Source: Candidatus Nitrosoglobus terrae
Lineage (GTDB): Bacteria; Pseudomonadota; Gammaproteobacteria; Nitrosococcales; Nitrosococcaceae
Assembly: GCF_002356115.1 (NCBI RefSeq)
Contig: NZ_AP014836.1
Coordinates: 1,861,091-1,925,090, forward strand
Length of the DNA stretch: 64,000 nucleotides
Direction of reading: 5' to 3'
Shown: one piece after another, positions 6,237 to 23,712 of the stretch
Layout of the letters: each line of letters opens with the position of its first letter
Position numbering within the stretch: position 1 is the first letter of the stretch
Position numbers and translations under genes: made by a program
The notes under the pieces: model-generated
Database searches by the model: none
What the model saw: the letters and a program-made list of their open reading frames with translations, nothing else
What the model was told of the DNA's origin: nothing

Positions 6237-9200
6237 GAAACACCCCCACGGGCGTGGGGAAGACGCATCCGTGAGAATGAGGGGGATGGCAACGGGGGAA
6301 ACACCCCCACGGGCGTGGGGAAGACATTCATACAAGCAAGGACTACACACATGAAAGAGAAACACCCCCACGGGCGTGGGGAAGACCGTCGAGAAGCGAT
6401 TTTTATGACAAGACCCCCGGAAACACCCCCACGGGCGTGGGGAAGACCGGAGCTGTCCATAAGCACGTCTGGCGGTGGAGGAAACACCCCCACGGGCGTG
6501 GGGAAGACAATGTATCTATAGTAAAACGAGCTTTCTATATAGAAACACCCCCACGGGCGTGGGGAAGACCCGTTCGGGGAACAGCTGCATATCCATCCGC
6601 CGGAAACACCCCCACGGGCGTGGGGAAGACCAAAGATAAAGTCGAGGGCTGAGTATGATCTCAGAAACACCCCCACGGGCGTGGGGAAGACGATATGCAG
6701 CGCTCAAACTCTAGAGAATAAGGGGAAACACCCCCACGGGCGTGGGGAAGACATACCGGAGGCCGCTGCTATATTTCTTACTATAGAAACACCCCCACGG
6801 GCGTGGGGAAGACTCTTAGCGAAAAGGTTTTTAGGAATATTTCAAAGAAACACCCCCACGGGCGTGGGGAAGACAACATTAAACGTTCTCATTATCACTC
6901 CGATTTAGAAACACCCCCACGGGCGTGGGGAAGACCTAGCCGTGACCGTCTTTAAAAGTAAAGACAAAGAAACACCCCCACGGGCGTGGGGAAGACTTTC
7001 TAGTTCTAGCTCATCTCGATTACGCGGCAGAAACACCCCCACGGGCGTGGGGAAGACTCGTTGTCTTATAAGTAACGCCGTCGCTAATCAGAAACACCCC
7101 CACGGGCGTGGGGAAGACTCGCCGATTTTCACTTCGCAAAAAAGCTGGGAAGAAACACCCCCACGGGCGTGGGGAAGACCCGGCTCTGTACCAAGTCAGT
7201 GAAAGCGACCAAGAAACACCCCCACGGGCGTGGGGAAGACGGCATATTTACCGAAAAGCCTAATCGCGTGCCAGAAACACCCCCACGGGCGTGGGGAAGA
7301 CAAAAAAATGAGCGTACAAAAATTAAAAACTTTAGAAACACCCCCACGGGCGTGGGGAAGACATTCAAGTCACCTACCTTTACTTCACAGAAAAGGAAAC
7401 ACCCCCACGGGCGTGGGGAAGACAATGTATGAAAAGCTCGTTTTAATATAGGTGCAGAAACACCCCCACGGGCGTGGGGAAGACAAAAGACTATATAAGA
7501 TGTGTATCAACAAAAAGGAAACACCCCCACGGGCGTGGGGAAGACGATAGTCTCAGTGTCGTACGATAGTTTTACGTGGAAACACCCCCACGGGCGTGGG
7601 GAAGACCACCATCCTTGTAGTGCTTAATGAAGCGTCTGAGAAACACCCCCACGGGCGTGGGGAAGACTGCAGGATATCTTTAAAAAACGTTTTTACTACA
7701 GAAACACCCCCACGGGCGTGGGGAAGACTTATCTTACGATACTAGCTACAGTAATATAAAGGAAACACCCCCACGGGCGTGGGGAAGACACTGTGTGACT
7801 GTCATCGCTTGAAGAAACTAAAGAAACACCCCCACGGGCGTGGGGAAGACCTATCATAAGACACTGAGACTATCGTTTCTTTAGAAACACCCCCACGGGC
7901 GTGGGGAAGACAGAAATCTCATATTTTACTTGCATCCCTCAGGAGAAACACCCCCACGGGCGTGGGGAAGACAGAAATCTCATATTTTACTTGCATCCCT
8001 CAGGAGAAACACCCCCACGGGCGTGGGGAAGACTCTTTCCCTAGAGTTCCAAGTAAGATAACTTTAGAAACACCCCCACGGGCGTGGGGAAGACGCGCGG
8101 AGTGAGGTTTAAGGGGTATATCGGGTAGAAACACCCCCACGGGCGTGGGGAAGACTTCCAAGCGCTCCAGTCGCTCCATGCTAGAACAGAAACACCCCCA
8201 CGGGCGTGGGGAAGACCCTAGGGAACGGATTCTGGGAAGATTTGCCTGAGAAACACCCCCACGGGCGTGGGGAAGACTTTTAGAGTATGTAAAAGATAAC
8301 CCTAAACCCGGAAACACCCCCACGGGCGTGGGGAAGACAAGTTTGGGGGGTGGCTAAAATATACGATGATAGAAACACCCCCACGGGCGTGGGGAAGACC
8401 CATGAGTGTCTGCCTTTTCTAGATGAGAACCAGAAACACCCCCACGGGCGTGGGGAAGACGCTACATCCCAATTATTCAGACAAAACCTGTAAGAAACAC
8501 CCCCACGGGCGTGGGGAAGACACAAGGAGAAACAAAATGGTTAGACGAGTAAAAGAAACACCCCCACGGGCGTGGGGAAGACTCGCCTACTTTCACTTCA
8601 CAAAAAAGCTGAGAAGAAACACCCCCACGGGCGTGGGGAAGACTTGTACACATGAAACATTACATTTACAAAGAAGGAAACACCCCCACGGGCGTGGGGA
8701 AGACGGAGCCGGTTCTCTAACCCGCCATCCTTTCGTGGAAACACCCCCACGGGCGTGGGGAAGACTAAGCGACGTGACTAGAGATGAAGTAAGAGAGAGA
8801 AACACCCCCACGGGCGTGGGGAAGACAGAGGTGATGCAGTAAGACAGGCTATGGAGAAAGAAACACCCCCACGGGCGTGGGGAAGACGCTTGGAACGCAT
8901 CACAGAACTGAAAAAAAGCAGAAACACCCCCACGGGCGTGGGGAAGACCAAAATCGCTAAAGCATGCAAAAACATCCACGAGAAACACCCCCACGGGCGT
9001 GGGGAAGACACGCTACCTATCCTAGAAGCCTCAGAACCCATAGAAACACCCCCACGGGCGTGGGGAAGACTTTGCACTAGATAAGAGCTGGAGCCTAAAA
9101 GAGGAAACACCCCCACGGGCGTGGGGAAGACTCCTCTTTTCCGGTAGAGGTGCCCACGTAGACGGAAACACCCCCACGGGCGTGGGGAAGACGTTCCATG

Positions 9201-10717
9201 TGCCCGATATGGGCGTGGAGTGAGGGAAACACCCCCACGGGCGTGGGGAAGACAGCCGTGCCCCTTCAACGCGCCCTGAAACCTTAGAAACACCCCCACG
9301 GGCGTGGGGAAGACAGCATACGATAGAAAAAGTAATAATAAAGGGGAGAAACACCCCCACGGGCGTGGGGAAGACAAAACAGGAGTACAAAAAATGAGCA
9401 TACAAAAAGAAACACCCCCACGGGCGTGGGGAAGACTCAAATCGTAGATGTCTTTGCATGCTTTAGCGAGAAACACCCCCACGGGCGTGGGGAAGACCCC
9501 AAGTTTCAGAGGAAATAAAAGAGCCGGCCAGAAACACCCCCACGGGCGTGGGGAAGACCGCAGCGCGGAGTAAAACTTATAGACCCCGGGGGAAACACCC
9601 CCACGGGCGTGGGGAAGACCGCGTTTATCCAGAACTGACCCGGGGCTTTTCAGAAACACCCCCACGGGCGTGGGGAAGACCATCATCAAGATAGCTATTT
9701 AACATAATATACAGAAACACCCCCACGGGCGTGGGGAAGACTTGATGGAACATGGGAAGACGGCGCTAAAGACAGAAACACCCCCACGGGCGTGGGGAAG
9801 ACATCCTGATAATAATGGTTATCCGCGGGGATGATGAAACACCCCCACGGGCGTGGGGAAGACCAGTACTTTAATGGAAGGAACCTAGCTATCTTGGAAA
9901 CACCCCCACGGGCGTGGGGAAGACAAAAGTCAGGAAGGGCGCTAAAATAAATCATGAGAAACACCCCCACGGGCGTGGGGAAGACGCATCATCCCCCGCA
10001 TCATCGCACCAGCACCTAGAAACACCCCCACGGGCGTGGGGAAGACTATAAAAAAGTCATGAGCAGCGCTAAAAATAAAGAAACACCCCCACGGGCGTGG
10101 GGAAGACTTGAAAAGCACAGGGCTATATCTACCAGCTCTAGAAACACCCCCACGGGCGTGGGGAAGACAAAGTAAGCGTCAATTCGCTAACTAGATAAAT
10201 GGAAACACCCCCACGGGCGTGGGGAAGACCTAGATGTTCTCATTATATGAAAAAGTATATTGGAAACACCCCCACGGGCGTGGGGAAGACTTAAAGAACT
10301 AGCGAGCAAGGTGTGACAATGGAGAAACACCCCCACGGGCGTGGGGAAGACTGAAGATAAAAACGGGGTTATGATTTCATCTGAGAAACACCCCCACGGG
10401 CGTGGGGAAGACTAGCTTCCTCTAGAACCGTTTGTTTTTTATTGAGAAACACCCCCACGGGCGTGGGGAAGACCAATGACTGCTGTCAAAACCCAGTCCA
10501 GCGATAGAAACACCCCCACGGGCGTGGGGAAGACCAGTTAAATGAATGGTGTTACAGGAACCCTAAAGAAACACCCCCACGGGCGTGGGGAAGACCCTTG
10601 GCAACAGCAGTCCGATCTTCTTCCTCGAGAAACACCCCCACGGGCGTGGGGAAGACTTGTCCGGAATTGGTTTGCTTAAATAACCACCTGAAACACCCCC
10701 ACGGGCGTGGGGAAGAC
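6237..10717 (-). CRISPR. Type I-E CRISPR array, 74 repeats and 73 spacers
   Basis: I checked the start of each repeat by hand: a 28-bp repeat recurs every 61 bp from 6237 to 10690 without one change of period, giving 74 repeats and 73 spacers of exactly 33 bp. I see no variant repeat, including the leader-distal one at 6237. Read on the minus strand (the crRNA strand), the repeat begins GTCTTCCCC, has arms CCCCAC and GTGGGG around a GCCC loop, and ends GTGTTTC. It is a normal Cas6e substrate that would leave an 8-nt handle once the PAM-derived base after the repeat is counted. The leader and cas2 lie at the high-coordinate end, so new spacers enter near 10690 and the oldest are next to mutL. 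Confidence 0.99.
7884..8005 (-). repeat. Tandem duplication of one repeat-spacer unit inside the array
   Basis: The spacers at 7912-7944 and 7973-8005 are identical over all 33 bases, and both begin agaaatctcatatttt on the plus strand. The flanking repeats are also identical, so a 61-bp unit has been duplicated exactly. It lies about 29 units from the leader-distal end. It probably arose by slippage or recombination between repeats rather than by a second acquisition. Confidence 0.98.
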
Positions 10718-10822: not shown

Positions 10823-11119
10823 TTAATTTACCTCTTTCAAGGTTTCCACAATCAATTGAAGACCCGAAAGGGTGATCGTAGGTTTACGGGGTGGGCCAAT
10901 GGTTCTGATCTCAAAACCCGGTGAGCGGGGAATCGAACGGACAAGCAGCACACCGGATTCTACCGGGCAGTGTTTGTACAGATAATCCACCACTGTAGTG
11001 GCGACCGAATCTTTGATACCCGAGACAAATACATTAGGCCGAGGCTCAATAAACCATAATTTCATCCGCCCACGCACCGCAGGCGGTAAGTCATTTGCAA
11101 TAACGATTAGCACGTCCAC
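10823..11119 (-). CDS. cas2: CRISPR-associated endonuclease Cas2, type I-E
   Basis: Forms the dimer that bridges two Cas1 dimers in the spacer-integration complex. The protein has 98 residues, usual for Cas2e, with an N-terminal beta strand VLIVIANDLPPAVRGRM in the I-E style (compare E. coli NCPPALRG) and a C-terminal GFEIRTIG segment. It starts at a GTG inside the cas1 coding region, giving a 29-bp overlap; a second GTG two codons later (11113) is also possible. It is the last gene before the leader. A long overlap with cas1 suggests fixed stoichiometry of the adaptation proteins. Confidence 0.95.
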   Translation of the reverse strand: MDVLIVIANDLPPAVRGRMKLWFIEPRPNVFVSGIKDSVATTVVDYLYKHCPVESGVLLVRSIPRSPGFEIRTIGPPRKPTITLSGLQLIVETLKEVN

Positions 11120-11966
11120 TCCCCAGTATAGCAGTCACATCTGCCCCTACTCTGGCCAATAGATCCATCTCAATCACCCGTTCCCGAAATCTCGCAGATA
11201 CTTTATGTTTGTCATAACGCCCGGCCAAATCGCGAGTTAAGGCAAATGCTAAATCAATACACAGCGTTTCTTTATATAAATCCGCCAAATCATAGATAAA
11301 AGGCAAGGGACTCCCAGAGTGAATAAAGCCAATACACGGCGAATAACCCATACTATGGATGGCTGAACAAAGAATACCGTAAAGGGCAGCGTTGGCAGCT
11401 GTAAGCACCTGATTGGTGAGATCGCTGATTTCAAATTTGCCCGGCGTATAAATACGCCCCTTCCAGCCTACTTGATACTCTTCGGCTTTTTGCTGATATA
11501 GGCCACGTACCCGCAAGCCCTCCATGCCCATCATTTCCTTAATCGTCTTACCTGCTAAGTCAGCCTCAGGAAAGCGATGGGCAAAGAACCGTCGCGCCAC
11601 TGCTAAGGATTTTTTAGGGTCGCTGGCAAGCTCAATTTGTTGCTTAAGATTACGGGTATTGGCGGTAGGCAGAAAACCGGCGGCGTAAAATAACAGAGAA
11701 TCCTCCCCTACCCAACATACCGCACAGTTAGCGGCAGTGGCCGTTTTAATCGCGTCATGGGTCACGGTCGTCCCCGGCCCCAACAATAACGCATTGAGGG
11801 TAGCCACCGGCAATGGCACCACGTTGGCATCAGCATCGATCCACTTAACACTGCTGTCATCAATTTCTAACCGCCCCCGCTCCAGATAGATAAAAGGGTA
11901 TTTATCTTTTACTTGGGGCAAAGACTCTCGGGTGATCTTGACAAATAAACGCTGATCGTCGCTCAT
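11091..11966 (-). CDS. cas1: CRISPR-associated integrase Cas1, type I-E
   Basis: Catalytic subunit that inserts new spacers at the leader end of the array. The 291-residue length is somewhat under the E. coli protein. The C-terminal alpha-helical catalytic domain contains LTNQVLTAANAALYG and CIGFIHSGSPLPFIYDLADL, with the conserved His and the acidic residues that bind metal. The C-terminus ends GSGRANRYCK. It starts at an ATG 5 bp after the cas5e stop and overlaps cas2 by 29 bp. With cas2 it forms the adaptation module of the operon. Confidence 0.97.
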   Translation of the reverse strand: MSDDQRLFVKITRESLPQVKDKYPFIYLERGRLEIDDSSVKWIDADANVVPLPVATLNALLLGPGTTVTHDAIKTATAANCAVCWVGEDSLLFYAAGFLPTANTRNLKQQIELASDPKKSLAVARRFFAHRFPEADLAGKTIKEMMGMEGLRVRGLYQQKAEEYQVGWKGRIYTPGKFEISDLTNQVLTAANAALYGILCSAIHSMGYSPCIGFIHSGSPLPFIYDLADLYKETLCIDLAFALTRDLAGRYDKHKVSARFRERVIEMDLLARVGADVTAILGSGRANRYCK

Positions 11967-11971
11967 ATTCG

Positions 11972-12673
11972 CTACGCTAGCCGCTGTACCGTCACCCGTC
12001 GGTCACGGTATTTTTTATGCTCGCCAAACTGTAACGGAACATCGTTTAAGGTCAGTACTTCGTCGCCCTCATGCTCCCCTTGTCGTACTTGCAATACAGC
12101 CGTACGTTTCTTTTCCTCAGCTAATTTTTGGCCGGCGGCCAGGGCCTCACCTCCGGTCATAAATTCGCCTCGATAAATAAACTCACTGGGTACGCAATTT
12201 TTACGGCCTAGATACAAATCCCATACCGGTGCCTGTAAAGCGGCTATAATGTCTGTCACCCTAGCGGCAGGTACTTGTAAGGCTACTGCATAGGCCATAT
12301 CTTGCAAATAGTAGCGGTAAGTCATCTTAGTCCCTCCGCCAACTGCTTTGCCGCCATCACTTTTTTTCGGGATCAGTAGCGTTTGCCACGGATCTTGATC
12401 GTCATAGCCACTCCCCACCATATGAAAATCCCGCAGCAAGGGCTGGCGGTCCTGAGCATCCCGCGGTACATAAGCCACTAACTGCATATCCAAATCGACC
12501 CAAGCCGCCAACCAATCCCGCTGCTCTCCCCCGATACCTAATGCACAGCAGATCAAACCCAACACCCCCGATTTGGTGGGGAAATGTAAGCTATCACGGT
12601 GGCCAAACTTGGAGTCATGCCCCCAAGCCTGTAAAGGAGCCTCTAGCCATAATAAAAGATAAGGATCGCTCAT
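11972..12673 (-). CDS. cas5e: Cascade subunit Cas5e
   Basis: RAMP protein that caps the 5' handle of the crRNA in the type I-E Cascade complex. The 233 residues start with MSDPYLLLWLEAPLQAWGHD, the typical Cas5e N-terminus, followed by FPTKSGVLGLICCALGI and later LYLGRKNCVPS, the conserved thumb and glycine segment. It lies 9 bp after cas7e and 5 bp before cas1 on the minus strand, inside one continuous operon. Confidence 0.96.
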   Translation of the reverse strand: MSDPYLLLWLEAPLQAWGHDSKFGHRDSLHFPTKSGVLGLICCALGIGGEQRDWLAAWVDLDMQLVAYVPRDAQDRQPLLRDFHMVGSGYDDQDPWQTLLIPKKSDGGKAVGGGTKMTYRYYLQDMAYAVALQVPAARVTDIIAALQAPVWDLYLGRKNCVPSEFIYRGEFMTGGEALAAGQKLAEEKKRTAVLQVRQGEHEGDEVLTLNDVPLQFGEHKKYRDRRVTVQRLA

Positions 12674-12682
12674 GATTCCCCC

Positions 12683-13711
12683 TCACTGCACATGATTTTG
12701 CAGCTTGGTAATCAGATCATCGATGCTGAAATTTTCATCTTCACCAAACTCATACGCCCCTAGCTGGCCAAACAATGAGCCGCTGAGTTTTTCTTTTTTA
12801 TCGAGGTAGTCTTTCAGCGCCTCAATGCTAGGTTGCAAGTAGCCCTCACCTTTAGCTTTAACGGGTTTTTCAAAGGGTATTTGTAAGCGCTGGCCTTTGC
12901 GCACCAATACCCGAGCAAACTCCCACGGGCTGGCACCGGATTGGGTGGTTTGGCGGGCACTGGGCACCGCCACAAATAGGGCTTGGGTAAAAGCAGTAAT
13001 GGCTTTTTTCAGGTCTTCTGTCCCCAACGTTTGGGCAAGCTGGCCTAAATCTAAGCTGACGTAGCGGTAATAGGTAGCGCTATTAAATTCCAAGCTCCCC
13101 ATGTGGGCGGAACAGGGTTTTTCCGCTAGATCATCCAGCGCAGTAAAAAACTCCACCTCATTACTCACCTTGTGGGTAGAAATAGCATGGGCAAAAGACG
13201 CGGCGGCCTCCACGTTCATGTCTGCTGTCTTAGCCACCATGCGACCAAATAGGGCAATATCCAGCGCATCCACCGCTGGATTGATTGTTTTTTTAGCAAC
13301 CTTAGCTACTTCCTTATCTTTGAATTTACTGACATCAAAGCCATTTTCTTTGGCGTACTCAGCAAAAGCGGTAGCTTCGGTGTCGCTGATAAATAGCAAA
13401 GTATCATCGATAATCAGATCTGCCAGTTTTTTGCCACAGGCTTGAGCCAAGCTTTCTTCAGCTCCGGCAGCTTGGCAGGCTTTAGTAAAAATTCTTTCTG
13501 CCTGTTTGGTACGGGTTGCTAGCTTGATACCAAAATCTGGCATCGCCAGCCGCACCTGGCGCTTCCAGCACTGGGAGCTAACACGGGCACGAGTGACTCC
13601 CCCCACTACAGCAGTCTTGGGTGCCCCCACGTCATCCCGATTCAGACAAGTAACGGGGAAGGATTGGAGGATATGAAATTCAATACGGGTATTTGTGTAG
13701 ATGTTAGTCAT
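12683..13711 (-). CDS. cas7e: Cascade backbone subunit Cas7e
   Basis: Forms the helical backbone that coats the crRNA spacer. The N-terminal IEFHILQSFPVTCLNRDDVG and GGVTRARVSSQCWKR are diagnostic, with SLEFNSATYYRY and QTTQSGASPWEF further on. I start it at the ATG at 13711 (MTNIYTNTRIEF, 342 residues) because AGGAG lies about 7 bases before it; an upstream in-frame start at 13744 would run into cas6e. Cas7 follows cas6e rather than cse2 here, unlike the E. coli operon. Confidence 0.97.
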   Translation of the reverse strand: MTNIYTNTRIEFHILQSFPVTCLNRDDVGAPKTAVVGGVTRARVSSQCWKRQVRLAMPDFGIKLATRTKQAERIFTKACQAAGAEESLAQACGKKLADLIIDDTLLFISDTEATAFAEYAKENGFDVSKFKDKEVAKVAKKTINPAVDALDIALFGRMVAKTADMNVEAAASFAHAISTHKVSNEVEFFTALDDLAEKPCSAHMGSLEFNSATYYRYVSLDLGQLAQTLGTEDLKKAITAFTQALFVAVPSARQTTQSGASPWEFARVLVRKGQRLQIPFEKPVKAKGEGYLQPSIEALKDYLDKKEKLSGSLFGQLGAYEFGEDENFSIDDLITKLQNHVQ

Positions 13712-13724
13712 GAAAAACTCCTGT

Positions 13725-14381
13725 TTAGTTAAATGGGTTATCAATCAGCGGCACAATCTGTAGTAGACCGCAGCCAAAGGCGCGGCCTCGGCCAATGCCG
13801 TTGGTAAAGTTGTGGCAAAATTGCTCACGGTTGGTTACAGCAAGCTGGCCTTGGATATGGGCTTGGGCTAACGTCACCGGACGCTGGGCTTTGTCTTTAA
13901 ACTGCAACACTTCTAGCCGGTCTATTTGCAGGTGCTCAGCAGAAGCGGTAAAACCCCAGCTGGCAGCAGCCCGCTCTAAAAACCACTGGGCTACCGCGTC
14001 GCGACTCTTCACTGGCATCAACTTACGGCTAGCGTTATCGCGTCGGGTGGGATTGATAATCACCTTGAAGCGATAGCGCCCGTGGGTAAGAAAATTATCT
14101 GGAATGGGACGGCTATTCACCTCACCATAGGCTTGGCCGTCCTCATTTACAGCCTGCTCGGCAGGCACACGATTAGCCAGTAGCAAAATCTTACGTCCCT
14201 GAAAATCACCCCCTTGGTCAGCGTATAAAATGCCGCTGGCTTGGCTACCCTGTTTCTCAGCGCTGCTACGCCTATCTTCGTATAAGCTATACACCACCCG
14301 ATGCAGGGAATAAGGATCGGTGATGCGCAACGCCTTGATAGCAGCACGATCAAGCTGTAACACGCTAGCGGTCAGATTCAT
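13725..14381 (-). CDS. cas6e: crRNA-processing endoribonuclease Cas6e
   Basis: Cuts the pre-crRNA at the 3' base of the repeat hairpin and stays bound in Cascade. The N-terminal ferredoxin fold has DPYSLHRVVYSLYED, with the catalytic His at about residue 27. Residues PDNFLTHGRYRFKVIINPT form the middle. The C-terminal fold ends with the glycine-rich loop GIGRGRAFGCGLLQIVPL. The length of 218 is close to the family norm. It overlaps cse2 by 4 bp (ATGA). Its position between cse2 and cas7e differs from the E. coli order, where cas6e follows cas5e. Confidence 0.96.
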   Translation of the reverse strand: MNLTASVLQLDRAAIKALRITDPYSLHRVVYSLYEDRRSSAEKQGSQASGILYADQGGDFQGRKILLLANRVPAEQAVNEDGQAYGEVNSRPIPDNFLTHGRYRFKVIINPTRRDNASRKLMPVKSRDAVAQWFLERAAASWGFTASAEHLQIDRLEVLQFKDKAQRPVTLAQAHIQGQLAVTNREQFCHNFTNGIGRGRAFGCGLLQIVPLIDNPFN

Positions 14382-14920
14382 GGGGCCCCCTCAGCTGGAG
14401 CATCAGCCTCAGTTTGGCGACCATAGAACTCTTGCGCCCATTGCGCTTTGATTTGTTGCCCATGAGGGGCAAAATACTGCAACTGCCGCAATAAACGAAC
14501 GTAATCTAAGGGTTGGGTCACGCGGCTTTCAATTAGGGTTAGCACTGGGCGCAAAATACGGCACAATTCAGGTAGGCCATCGCAGGCCAGTACGCGACGC
14601 AATTTGGCCTTGGCCTGATCGCTTTGGTTGTCATCGGTGTAACAAGCAGCGATGGCTTGGCCCAGCCTGAAATTGCCGTTACGCTCAGCCCTAGCTTTCG
14701 CTAGGGCAGCCGCTACAGTGATAAAGGGTAGACGCTGATACTCCTGCTCTAGATCAACCCCAAACCCAGCCAAAAACTCCCAGCTCTGATATTCAGTGGC
14801 CGGATTATCAGCTCTGCGTAAGCGCGCGGCCAACCCTTTATCCTGCTGGATACGGGTCAGCAGGTAGCTCACGAAATTTTCTTCCCGACTGGCCGGGCGA
14901 TCGGATGCTACAGTTTCCAC
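14378..14920 (-). CDS. cse2: Cascade small subunit Cse2 (Cas11)
   Basis: Small alpha-helical subunit, two copies of which line the belly of Cascade and stabilise the displaced DNA strand. The 180 residues are rich in Ala, Leu and Arg, with YQRLPFITVAAALAKARAER and LRRVLACDGLPELCRILRPV matching the expected helices. Position supports the call: it sits between cas8e (17-bp gap) and cas6e (4-bp overlap). Sequence identity in this family is low, so context carries part of the weight. Confidence 0.92.
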   Translation of the reverse strand: METVASDRPASREENFVSYLLTRIQQDKGLAARLRRADNPATEYQSWEFLAGFGVDLEQEYQRLPFITVAAALAKARAERNGNFRLGQAIAACYTDDNQSDQAKAKLRRVLACDGLPELCRILRPVLTLIESRVTQPLDYVRLLRQLQYFAPHGQQIKAQWAQEFYGRQTEADAPAEGAP

Positions 14921-16506: not shown

Positions 16507-19128
16507 TCAGTCCTTATCTTTTGTTAAAACTTGGTAGCCCAAGTCATTGCGGTATTCCAAATAGTAGCGTTCATGCACAGGGGCACCATATAAACCTTGA
16601 AGCCGATCCGAATCCACTAACGCTACGCGTAAGAGACTCTCGTCCTCTGCCCAATTGGGATCACCCAAATAGAAACAATGGCCAAATCCAAGTTTCTGTA
16701 GCTGATCCCGTGCGGGGGGGGGCAAAGGTGCCTCAGCGGCGCGTACCGGCACGACCTGCTGCATGAGTGTTGCTGTCAGGGTTTTCCATGCAGATTTATT
16801 TAAGCGATGGTACTGCGTAGGTAATTCAAGGGTTTGGCCATCTAGCAAGGTCAAACGGGTAACGTGGTGGTCTTTGTCGTAATACAAATCCCGTAGCAGT
16901 AGCACTTCATAGCTATCGCTTTCGCTATAACGGGTTTGGGCTTTGGCTTCTGGTAACGTTTTGCCATCTTCGGCCAAGCCGATACGCGCCAATTGCCGTA
17001 GAGCTTGTCGACCCATACGCTGATGGCCATACCCTTTGCTGCCATGTTCCAGCTCATACAGCCAACGAGCCATAGCGCCCTCTTCACATCTATTGGCGTA
17101 AGTGGCTTCAATCAGACCCCGAATATCGCTGGGTAAGGCAAGCTGTTGAACGGGCTGCCATACCTCCAAGCTACGGCATAGCACATAAGGGGCATAAACA
17201 TGCGCACTGGCACCAAAAGCATGAACGGGATTTTCAATAGCACCATGTAAATCCGGGGCTAATAGCCAAGCTTCACAACGTGCTCCCGCTGGACGGGGAG
17301 TATCGGTGTGGCGCCACAATCGACCTAGTCGCTGCAATAACATATCTGTAGGGGCAAAACGACTCACCATAAAATCGGCATCGATATCCAGCGACTGCTC
17401 TAGTACTTGAGTGCCGATTAGAATCCGTCCTTGCTTAACCCGGTGCTCCCAACCGGGTTTACCGAATAAATCCACCCAATGATTTTCAATTTTTTGCCGA
17501 TCGGCAGCAGTAAAGCGTGAATGGAGCAGGCCGCAAGCTAGTCCCAATTCCTGAGCACGAGCCGCTAAATCAAGGTAGCGTTGCTGAGCCTCTTTGACGG
17601 TATTTTCAATCCATAGTACTTGCTGGCCTTGGCTAGCACGATCTAGCGCCTCTTGTATTGCCTTAGCTTCGTCCTGTAGCAATATAATTTCTATGTGCGT
17701 ATCAGGCGGAGGCGCAACGGCCAGTTCCCGCACTGCTTCCGCTGCGCGGACGGCGGTAATCAGAGGATAGGCTTGGCTATGCAGTGGCATTTGTAGCAAT
17801 TCACTGCGCCGCTCCTGATTGAGGGTGGCGCTTAGAATAATGACCGTACAATGCAGGTTACGCAAAAGCTCTACCAGCGCATTTAGCAAGGTGCCCGTAT
17901 AGGCATCATAGGTATGCACTTCATCGAGAATCACCACCTTGCCCGCCAAACCAAAAGCGCGCACAAAACCATGTTTAACATTCATGGCGGCCATTAAGGC
18001 TTGATCAATAGTGCCCACGGCAAAGGGTGCCAATAGCCCACGTTTAGCTTGACTAAACCACGCGCCGCCGGGTTTCCCTTCTTCACCCATCTCCATTTCC
18101 TGTAACCATGCCTTGCTATGGAGCAACAAAGCGCGACGGTGCGGGCAATCGGGGGCAAGGATGCGCTCTAGAAAGCAATTGAAACGTTGATACATCTTGT
18201 TAGAAGTGAGCTGGGTAGGCAGGGCGAAATATATTCCCATCGCCTGCTCGGATTGCAGTATCTGGTAGGCAGCATAGAGGGCTGCTTCGGTCTTCCCCAG
18301 CCCCATAGGCGCTTCCAACACATACACCCCTGAGCCGCTTCTTACAACGTCGATCAATTGTTGCTGGGCTGGGCGCGGGGGCGGGGTAAAATCAAACACC
18401 TGCTCAAAGCTCAGGTTTTTCTGATAAGTGGGTAGTACAAAACCGGCCTCATCTACAGCACGCTTGATATTCTCCTGCCAAGGCTGTTTTGGATCTTCAA
18501 AATGCTGCCCCGAACCCACCCAGTCGGCCACACTGGTAAGACCGGCCACTAAACGCGCCTGAGCAGTTGAGTTTATTCGGGGCCAATCCATCCCAAGGTG
18601 CTGTTTTAGGTCTTCTACTAAAGCCTTACGCTCTAGCTGCCAAGGTAGGCCGCCAAACACCTCTGCATCCGCCCGTTTACCACTCAATTGAGGAGAAAAT
18701 CCATGATGCTGCCCCAAAATTTCAGGCACCCATTGGGGGGCATTCAGCGCTTTAGCCGCTGCTTGACTCACGCCAGCGTGTCCACCCCATTGCTTTTCAA
18801 GATCAGGATTAATCGATAAAGCTGAAAAATGCTCAATACCAATAGTGCAGGCACGGCGAAGTTTTTCAAAAAAAGTAGGACTAACCTTGCCGATATCGTG
18901 ACAGGCGGCGGCAAAGGGGGCATCGTCTGGAAATAGCTGATGGCGCAACTGATCCGGATAGCGCTCAAGCAACACACGGGCTACCTTGCCTACGATTTGA
19001 CAGTGCTCGGGCACGCTACGGCCAAGCTGGATATTCCCCGCTGCATCCTTAAATGTTTTTGCAGGGCAGTTGATGAATGGAATGACGGGAATATTGTTTT
19101 TATTCCCTGAGCTTGGTGGCTTTCGCAT
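16507..19128 (-). CDS. cas3: CRISPR-associated helicase-nuclease Cas3, type I-E
   Basis: Degrades target DNA after Cascade binding. An N-terminal HD nuclease domain (CHDIGK, His77-Asp78, plus QHHGFSPQ) is followed by a superfamily 2 helicase with Walker A APMGLGKTEAA (about residue 275), DEVHTYD, the SAT motif LSATLNQE and motif VI LLQRLGRLWRH. The C-terminal domain has LYYDKDHHVTRL. At 873 residues it is full length and no frame break is seen. It is the first gene of the operon, so its promoter should lie in 19129-19417. Confidence 0.97.
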   Translation of the reverse strand: MRKPPSSGNKNNIPVIPFINCPAKTFKDAAGNIQLGRSVPEHCQIVGKVARVLLERYPDQLRHQLFPDDAPFAAACHDIGKVSPTFFEKLRRACTIGIEHFSALSINPDLEKQWGGHAGVSQAAAKALNAPQWVPEILGQHHGFSPQLSGKRADAEVFGGLPWQLERKALVEDLKQHLGMDWPRINSTAQARLVAGLTSVADWVGSGQHFEDPKQPWQENIKRAVDEAGFVLPTYQKNLSFEQVFDFTPPPRPAQQQLIDVVRSGSGVYVLEAPMGLGKTEAALYAAYQILQSEQAMGIYFALPTQLTSNKMYQRFNCFLERILAPDCPHRRALLLHSKAWLQEMEMGEEGKPGGAWFSQAKRGLLAPFAVGTIDQALMAAMNVKHGFVRAFGLAGKVVILDEVHTYDAYTGTLLNALVELLRNLHCTVIILSATLNQERRSELLQMPLHSQAYPLITAVRAAEAVRELAVAPPPDTHIEIILLQDEAKAIQEALDRASQGQQVLWIENTVKEAQQRYLDLAARAQELGLACGLLHSRFTAADRQKIENHWVDLFGKPGWEHRVKQGRILIGTQVLEQSLDIDADFMVSRFAPTDMLLQRLGRLWRHTDTPRPAGARCEAWLLAPDLHGAIENPVHAFGASAHVYAPYVLCRSLEVWQPVQQLALPSDIRGLIEATYANRCEEGAMARWLYELEHGSKGYGHQRMGRQALRQLARIGLAEDGKTLPEAKAQTRYSESDSYEVLLLRDLYYDKDHHVTRLTLLDGQTLELPTQYHRLNKSAWKTLTATLMQQVVPVRAAEAPLPPPARDQLQKLGFGHCFYLGDPNWAEDESLLRVALVDSDRLQGLYGAPVHERYYLEYRNDLGYQVLTKDKD

Positions 19129-22420: not shown

Positions 22421-23712
22421 AGTTAACGGTTTACGCTTCACGACCGGCTAACCTGTATCGGTTAACCTGAATTCTCGCTTGCTACGTTTTTCTTGCTTCA
22501 TCCTAGCCCGTATTCTCATTTAGCTTATACTAAACAAGCTTCCGGTTTGTCTGCCAGTCCACAAGCTTTAATTCCCGTGCGCCTCACGGTATCCTGTCTG
22601 CCCGACCTGTCTTGCCGACAGGCAGACAGGCAGGTTAGTGCTTTCTGTAGGATAACTTTAGCTGCTGCACTATCTCTATCATGATGAGCATGACATTCCT
22701 TGCATTCCCATTCTCGGACATTTACCAGCAGTTTCTCACCTATTGAGCCACAATCAGGGCAAATGCCAATAGAGCGTTCAAACCGGCCTATGGTCATTAA
22801 TTGTCTACCATACCATTGGGCTTTATAGGTCAGTTGACAGCGTAGCTCAGACCAATCGCAGTCCCCAACCGCTCTCGCTAGCTTTCCGTTGGCCATGATG
22901 CCACGCACGTTTAAGTCCTCAATTGCTGTTACTTGGTTTTCGCGTACGATTGAAGTACTTAAGTCGTGCAGAAAATTCCCTCGCTTGCTGGCTATTCTTT
23001 GGTGGATACGGGCTACGCCTATTCTGTTTTTGGCTCTGTTACTTGAGCCTTTTACTTTTCTTGATAAGTCCCGTTGTGCAGATTTAAGCTTACGTAGATA
23101 CTTGAAATAAAACTTCCTTGGTTTAACTCTATTACCGTTGCTATCGGCTATGAAGGGGGTTAACCCAAAATCTAACCCTATCGCTTTATCGGTTTCAGGG
23201 GGATTAATGACATCTATGTAATCACATTGAAGTGAGATAAACCATTGTCCTGAAGAATTACAAGATACCGTAGCACTATTTGGGGTTACGGGTATCTCTT
23301 GAAAGCTCCAGACTACTTTAACCTTGCCTAGTTTCGGTAAATCATTTGGTTTAAAGATTTTAGCACCTCTACGTTTATCTAACGTATAACAGCAAGACTT
23401 TACTTGATGACGCTTTTTAAACCTTGGGTATTTGCTTTTCTAGGGTTAGCATACGTGAAAGCGAAACGGCGTTTAACGCCTCTTTTCGTTCCTTATAAGC
23501 CTCGCTATGGGTTTTAATGCCCAGTTCCAGACGTAACGACAGGCATTAAACTCTTTAGTGAGCTGTTTTCTTTGGCGATCAGTGGAATAAAATCTAAGTT
23601 TATATGCTTTCATAGTTAAACTTCACATTAACTGTGGTAACGTAAAAAAATACAACCCGTCAAAACGTTTTATGTTGCCCTCGCGCGCTGTGCTCCGCCC
23701 CACTACGCAGAA
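22421..23712 (-). mobile_element. Degenerate IS200/IS605-family element (copy 1)
   Basis: A broken tnpB is flanked by sequence shared with a second remnant at 25266-25580. Right-end side: GAGTTAAC followed by GGTTTACGC near 22421, and a strong hairpin with arms CCTGTCTGCC and GGCAGACAGG around 22592-22629. Left-end side: TTTTATGTTGCCCTCG, then CTGTGCTCCGC (23668-23698). Subterminal hairpins and tnpB without tnpA are typical of this family. The boundaries are estimated from the similarity between the two copies, not from a target site. Confidence 0.7.
22525..23613 (-). pseudogene. tnpB: tnpB (RNA-guided nuclease of IS200/IS605 elements), frameshifted
   Basis: From the ATG at 23613 the frame gives MKAYKLRFYSTDRQRKQL and NACRYVWNWALK, then loses frame at AAAACCC near 23510, where one base is missing. 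A second break near 23435 joins MLTLEK to KYPRFKKRH with loss of the region normally between them. From there the frame is open to 22525 and keeps all RuvC signatures: GLDFGLTPF (Asp), AIEDLNVRGIM (Glu), the zinc ribbon CPDCGS and CKEC, and HDRDSAAAK (Asp). The downstream part has no ATG before the MANGK segment. The catalytic half is therefore preserved while the N-terminal recognition part is broken, and it is very probably inactive. Confidence 0.88.

What the first reader, a model, noticed from the sequence alone, without database searches (positions are those of the whole stretch)
6265..10689. A 5'-AAY PAM can be read from the spacers alone
On the crRNA strand the base just after the 28-bp repeat is T in 52, C in 19, A in 2 and G in 0 of 73 spacers, so it behaves as a PAM-derived 29th base. 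Overlapping related spacers supply each other's missing flanks. The spacer at 9437 is flanked by AA in its relative at 8949; the spacer at 8949 by AA in 9437; the spacer at 6509 by AA in 7424; the spacer at 7424 by AA in 6509; and the spacer at 9376 by AA in 7302. The spacer at 7363 is preceded by AG in two relatives, within a glutamine codon where the synonymous CAA would give AA. One weak pair (9925/10047) gives TG but its alignment is unsure. E. coli-type I-E uses AAG, so this Cascade probably reads AAT and AAC.
Basis: partly seen in the sequence, partly recalled or inferred. Interest (0 to 1): 0.85.

Follow-up and report, generated by a model that had tools for sequence, protein, structure and literature searches.

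The report
CRISPR array with AAY recognition motif
This bacterium's CRISPR immune system copies DNA that follows the letters AAT or AAC, and this can be read from its own 73 stored fragments; the same motif is already known from Vibrio cholerae, and here it turns out to mark a whole branch of such systems.

Summary
The array has 74 identical 28-bp repeats and 73 spacers, all 33 nt. On the crRNA strand the first spacer base is T52, C19, A2, G0 (P about 2e-17). Spacer-spacer overlaps give AA in front of five spacers and AG in front of one. I found no viral protospacer for this array. One A-start spacer matches the host's own xerD gene, directly behind AAC; it looks like a one-base slip, so Cascade would see ACA.

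The AAY reading holds for relatives. In 33 arrays beside Cas8e homologues, 976 of 992 spacers start with T or C. Twenty of 22 protospacers read for three related systems have AA upstream: AAT 9, AAC 9, AAG 1, AAA 1. E. coli-type loci carry G there instead. Cas1 residue 211, which contacts that PAM base, is Lys in 26/26 G-type and Ser in 29/29 Y-type proteins.

AAY type I-E is not new: V. cholerae has a near-identical repeat, 5'-pyrimidine spacers and a tested AAY PAM (PMC7677007). Verdict: real, correctly interpreted, a new member of a known kind. Evidence is strongest for spacer acquisition; Cascade's own requirement is inferred.

The parts
6237..10717 (-). CRISPR array: 74 identical 28-bp repeats, 73 spacers of 33 nt, transcribed on the minus strand
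   Evidence: the only array with this repeat in the genome
10718..10822 (-). leader, 105 bp between cas2 and the first repeat
   Evidence: position only
10823..11113 (-). cas2 (GTG start, overlaps the end of cas1)
   Evidence: reading frame and position; no family search run
11091..11966 (-). cas1e; Ser at E. coli position 211, E. coli C-terminal PAM-reading tail absent
   Evidence: NCBIfam TIGR03638 318 bits, cut-off 215.6
11972..12673 (-). cas5e
   Evidence: TIGR01868
12683..13744 (-). cas7e
   Evidence: TIGR01869
13725..14381 (-). cas6e
   Evidence: TIGR01907
14378..14920 (-). cse2 (cas11e)
   Evidence: TIGR02548
14938..16494 (-). cas8e (cse1), large subunit that would read the PAM
   Evidence: TIGR02547 217 bits, cut-off 70
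16507..19128 (-). cas3
   Evidence: TIGR01587 and TIGR01596
9803..9835 (-). A-start spacer identical to the host's own xerD 3' end (C1:885380-885412), preceded there by AAC
10657..10689 (-). leader-proximal (newest) spacer, the other one that starts with A; origin unknown

Best explanation
The array belongs to a complete type I-E system of the pyrimidine ('AAY') branch. Cas1-Cas2 captures DNA next to 5'-AAT or 5'-AAC and cuts inside that motif, so its last base becomes the first base of the 33-nt spacer; E. coli does the same with AAG. Cascade then most likely licenses targets by AA plus a pyrimidine, while the repeat end (TTTC) does not offer AA and so protects the array. Shown: the first-base bias, the AA flanks, clade-wide conservation, and protospacers of relatives. 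Inferred: that Cas8e of this organism needs AAY, and that Cas1 Ser211 with the missing C-terminal tail accounts for Y in place of G.
For: Bias and counts. AA at 5 of 6 flanks readable from spacer overlaps. Self-match of an A-start spacer directly behind AAC. 976 of 992 first bases are Y in 33 relatives' arrays; 52 of 52 in three plasmid-borne systems. Protospacers of a Chlorobiaceae relative: 14 of 14 AA, 12 of 14 AAY (AA background 5%). Protospacers of Klebsiella and Enterobacter plasmid systems whose Cas1 is 75-76% identical to the window's: 6 of 8 AA, 8 of 8 Y at -1 matching the spacer base. G instead in E. coli-type loci. Cas1 211 K versus S, a residue contacting the PAM base in E. coli (PMC6395717). 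V. cholerae precedent with conjugation tests (PMC7677007).
Against: No foreign protospacer was found for this array's own spacers. One window flank is AG rather than AA, and 2 of 22 relatives' protospacers lack AA (CAC, CGC), so AA is not absolute, or those are escape variants. Two of 73 spacers start with A. The Cas1 residue contrast rests on one split of the tree, so it is not independent evidence many times over.
Confidence: 0.92

Rival explanations
1. The PAM is only AA (AAN), as in some other I-E systems, and the pyrimidine comes from base composition.
For: AA is the constant part; Klebsiella I-E is listed as AAN (PMC8482600); one AAG and one AAA among the relatives' protospacers.
Against: After AA this DNA has A 45% and G 24%, yet first bases are A 2/73 and G 0/73. 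Clade-wide A 8 and G 8 of 992. Chlorobiaceae target DNA is richest in AAG, yet all 14 matching spacers start with C or T.
Confidence: 0.05
2. AAY is only the acquisition preference of Cas1-Cas2; Cascade tolerates any -1 base or a wider PAM set, as in E. coli.
For: The array records acquisition only. E. coli interference is looser than acquisition (PMC6546366). In V. cholerae, over-expression rescued two of four non-AAY targets (PMC7677007).
Against: In V. cholerae under normal expression, purine-start spacers against YTT gave no interference (PMC7677007). The tolerated self-match here sits in a register where Cascade would see ACA, which fits a demand for AAY.
Confidence: 0.35
3. The first-base bias reflects a variable last repeat base or processing, not the PAM.
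For: The base abuts the repeat, and in E. coli it was once taken as repeat (PMC7677007).
Against: T and C are interspersed along one array of otherwise identical repeats. In relatives the base usually equals the protospacer base: 8 of 8 and 11 of 14.
Confidence: 0.01

Closest known systems
Vibrio cholerae O395 type I-E (Bourgeois 2020, PMC7677007)
   Same: 28-bp repeat identical outside the 5-bp loop (GTCTTCCCCAC-----GTGGGGGTGTTTC), 33-nt spacers, conserved 5' pyrimidine (99.7%), PAM 5'-RTT on the target strand = AAY, captured base derived from the PAM.
   Different: In V. cholerae T and C are captured about equally; here T:C is 52:19, although AAT and AAC are equally common in this spacer DNA (65:66; P 7e-5). 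Relationship of the V. cholerae Cas proteins was not tested here.
Plasmid-borne type I-E of Klebsiella pneumoniae (NZ_CP079158.1) and Enterobacter asburiae (NZ_CP074179.1)
   Same: Cas1 76% and 75% identical, gene order cas3-cas8e-cse2-cas6e-cas7e-cas5e-cas1-cas2 (the Enterobacter copy has an insertion sequence within it), Y at every first spacer base, Ser at Cas1 211.
   Different: On plasmids, with spacers against conjugative plasmids and Ackermannviridae phages.
Escherichia coli K-12 type I-E
   Same: Same subunits; one PAM base becomes the first spacer base.
   Different: AAG; G fixed at position 29; Cas1 Lys211 and a C-terminal PAM-reading tail; gene order with cas6e after cas5e.
Gardnerella vaginalis and Lactobacillus casei I-E with computed AAY PAM (listed in PMC4246573)
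   Same: AAY motif.
   Different: Other phyla; relationship of their Cas1 to this clade was not tested here.

Membership tests
Type I-E CRISPR-Cas | Signature subunits Cas8e (Cse1) and Cse2 with Cas5e, Cas6e, Cas7e, Cas3, Cas1e | tested here: met
   All seven tested proteins pass the cut-off of at least one fitting NCBIfam model
Type I-E CRISPR-Cas | Cas2 and leader next to a 28/29-bp repeat array with about 61-bp period | tested here: met
   cas2 frame and 105-bp leader (cas2 by position and frame only); 28+33 in all 73 units
AAY (pyrimidine) branch of I-E, as in V. cholerae | Spacer position 1 is T or C | tested here: met
   71 of 73
AAY (pyrimidine) branch of I-E, as in V. cholerae | AA at -2/-3 of protospacers | tested here: met
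   5 of 6 flanks from spacer overlaps; no external protospacer for this array. Relatives 20 of 22
AAY (pyrimidine) branch of I-E, as in V. cholerae | Interference requires AAY | not testable with these tools
   Needs a plasmid or phage assay
E. coli-type (AAG) I-E | G at spacer position 1 / repeat position 29, Cas1 Lys211 and C-terminal tail | tested here: not met
   0 of 73 G; Ser211 and no tail

The most novel reading that the evidence does not exclude
Type I-E falls into Cas1e classes whose -1 PAM base is fixed by the PAM pocket (Lys211 plus C-terminal tail gives G; Ser211 without the tail gives pyrimidine), so the acquisition PAM of any I-E array can be read from the base after its 28-bp repeat, and a swap at residue 211 and the tail would switch it. 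In the pyrimidine class T may be favoured over C beyond base composition.
Probability: 0.35. Interest if true: 0.6.

Novelty: new member of a known kind. Interest (0 to 1): 0.36.

Why it matters
It shows that a PAM can be inferred from an array with almost no protospacers, and then checked on relatives. It extends a motif worked out in V. cholerae to a branch of type I-E found in Pseudomonadota, Chlorobiota, Thermodesulfobacteriota, Spirochaetota, Chlamydiota and on enterobacterial plasmids. It also gives a concrete test of what sets the PAM during acquisition: Cas1 residue 211 and the C-terminal tail.

Tried and rejected
The array against phage and plasmid records gave only chance matches or matches to other arrays. 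Five viral-contig scans with patterns back-translated from overlapping spacers gave zero matches, or three contigs where the spacers match no better than 23 of 33. The array against 371 related genomes gave only the self-match; other rows run across the repeat, lie in other arrays or are at chance level. The first third of the array re-searched alone against the own genome gave nothing new. Pooling 1065 spacers of window and relatives gave overlaps only inside the window's array. Arrays of two other relatives found no phage, and arrays L017, L036, L053 and L056 found no usable protospacer in their own or related genomes. Mapping the Cas8e PAM loops onto E. coli by profile alignment (19% identity) was too weak to compare the glycine loop, lysine finger or glutamine wedge residue by residue, so I draw nothing from it. 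Structure prediction was not run, as it would not show the contacts.

Full report
What is there. On the minus strand, downstream of a complete cas operon, lies an array of 74 identical 28-bp repeats and 73 spacers of exactly 33 nt. It is the only array with this repeat in the 2.02-Mb genome. The operon reads cas3, cas8e, cse2, cas6e, cas7e, cas5e, cas1, cas2 and then a 105-bp leader; seven of the proteins match type I-E family models above cut-off, and cas2 is assigned by position and frame.

The claim about the first base. T 52, C 19, A 2, G 0, exactly as reported. No other spacer position is skewed in that way. Given the spacers' own composition the chance of 71 or more pyrimidines is 2e-17. 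A plain AAN motif would predict A 45% and G 24%, so the pyrimidine is selected and not a by-product of AA.

The claim about AA. Five spacers have AA immediately upstream in an overlapping relative and one (7363) has AG. With AA before a pyrimidine at 6% in this DNA, 5 of 6 has a chance of 5e-6. The weak pair 9925/10047 is inside the noise. One extra real pair, 7546/7851, gives no 5' flank.

A self-match explains one exception. Spacer 9803, one of two that start with A, is identical over its full 33 nt to the host's own chromosome at the 3' end of xerD (gene named from its translation), and the site reads CAGCAAC followed by the spacer. So AAC lies directly in front of the captured segment. The simplest reading is a spacer taken at AAC but trimmed one base further, so that the pyrimidine was lost; Cascade would then see ACA, which would explain why a perfect self-match is tolerated. 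AAY in front of a random site has about a 4% chance, so this is suggestive only.

Relatives. A scan with Cas8e returned 52 loci from several phyla. In the 33 that carry arrays, the first base is T 578, C 398, A 8, G 8. One of them, a Chlorobiaceae genome bin, holds 14 protospacers of its own spacers: AA in 14 of 14, with AAC 8, AAT 4, AAG 1, AAA 1. Full systems with Cas1 75-76% identical to the window's sit on Klebsiella and Enterobacter plasmids and one with 69% on a Pseudomonas plasmid; all 52 of their spacers start with T or C. Eight protospacers of the Klebsiella and Enterobacter systems in named phages and plasmids give AAT 5, AAC 1, CAC 1 and CGC 1, and the -1 base equals the first spacer base in all eight. 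Altogether 20 of 22 have AA and 20 of 22 have a pyrimidine at -1.

Contrast with E. coli-type systems. Type I-E loci drawn from the same class and phylum through a Cas1e model fall into E. coli-like ones with G at that position in nearly every unit, and a third group with mostly C or a mixture of C, T and G. In a Cas1 tree the pyrimidine-type sequences lie together on one side of a long branch, with one five-spacer array (L032: C 3, T 1, A 1) scored as mixed among them. At E. coli residue 211, which contacts the PAM base in simulations of the E. coli complex and whose loss reduces acquisition (PMC6395717), all 26 G-type proteins have Lys and all 29 Y-type proteins have Ser; the C-terminal PAM-reading tail of E. 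coli Cas1 (around 285-291) is missing from the Y type. This is a plausible cause. It rests on a single deep split, and Ser is also common in the third group, so it is correlation.

Mechanism. Cas1-Cas2 binds a prespacer next to AAY, cuts within the motif and leaves its last base on the spacer. This is the E. coli mechanism with a different last base. Interference by AAY is inferred for this organism; for V. cholerae it was tested by conjugation (PMC7677007).

Known or new. Vibrio cholerae has the same repeat outside the loop, the same 33-nt spacers, the same 5' pyrimidine and a tested RTT (= AAY) PAM (PMC7677007). AAY was also computed for Gardnerella and L. casei (PMC4246573), and AAC, AAT and AAN appear among I-E PAMs in a catalogue (PMC8482600). 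The finding is therefore a new member of a known kind. I found no paper in the held library linking Cas1 residue 211 to the choice of G or Y, but that search was narrow and the library is incomplete.

A loose end. T exceeds C 52 to 19, although AAT and AAC are equally frequent inside these spacers (65 to 66; P 7e-5); the clade shows a milder excess (578 T seen, 519 expected). In V. cholerae, C-start spacers interfere less well (PMC7677007), so selection for working spacers, or a Cas1 preference, are both possible.

Noticed in passing
window 9803-9835; genome C1:885380-885412: Perfect self-targeting spacer against the 3' end of the host's xerD, directly behind AAC, apparently taken one base out of register.
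   Followed up: yes
window 6265-10689: T is favoured over C as first spacer base (52:19) although AAT and AAC are equally common in the spacer DNA; a milder excess is seen in relatives.
   Followed up: partly
window 7912-7944 and 7973-8005: Two neighbouring spacers are identical, probably a unit duplication by recombination.
   Followed up: no
window 7119, 7363, 8583; 8949, 9437; 6509, 7424; 7302, 9376; 7546, 7851: Several spacers sample the same target sites from slightly different phage variants on both strands; none of 992 spacers from 33 other arrays shows such overlaps at the same threshold.
   Followed up: partly
window 11972-14920: cas6e lies between cse2 and cas7e, unlike the E. coli order; the same order occurs in the Klebsiella and Enterobacter plasmid systems.
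   Followed up: partly
L099-L112, L135-L138: A third Cas1e group has mostly C or a mixture of C, T and G (rarely A) after the 28-bp repeat, suggesting AAC or AAB motifs.
   Followed up: partly
L170 (G814:C7:43500-61000): One Chlorobiaceae protospacer matches its spacer at positions 2-33 but has AAA where the spacer carries C, a possible PAM escape change.
   Followed up: no
L178, L179: Complete AAY-type I-E systems on Klebsiella and Enterobacter plasmids carry spacers against conjugative plasmid genes (traG) and Ackermannviridae phages.
   Followed up: partly
window 22525-22908: Short ORF resembling the C-terminal zinc-finger end of a TnpB-like protein, a possible insertion-sequence remnant (judged by eye).
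   Followed up: no
L059 (G000:C2, 6436 bases): Second contig is a small element with a plasmid replication-initiator-like ORF and a primase/helicase-like pair (judged by eye); no window spacer matches it.
   Followed up: partly
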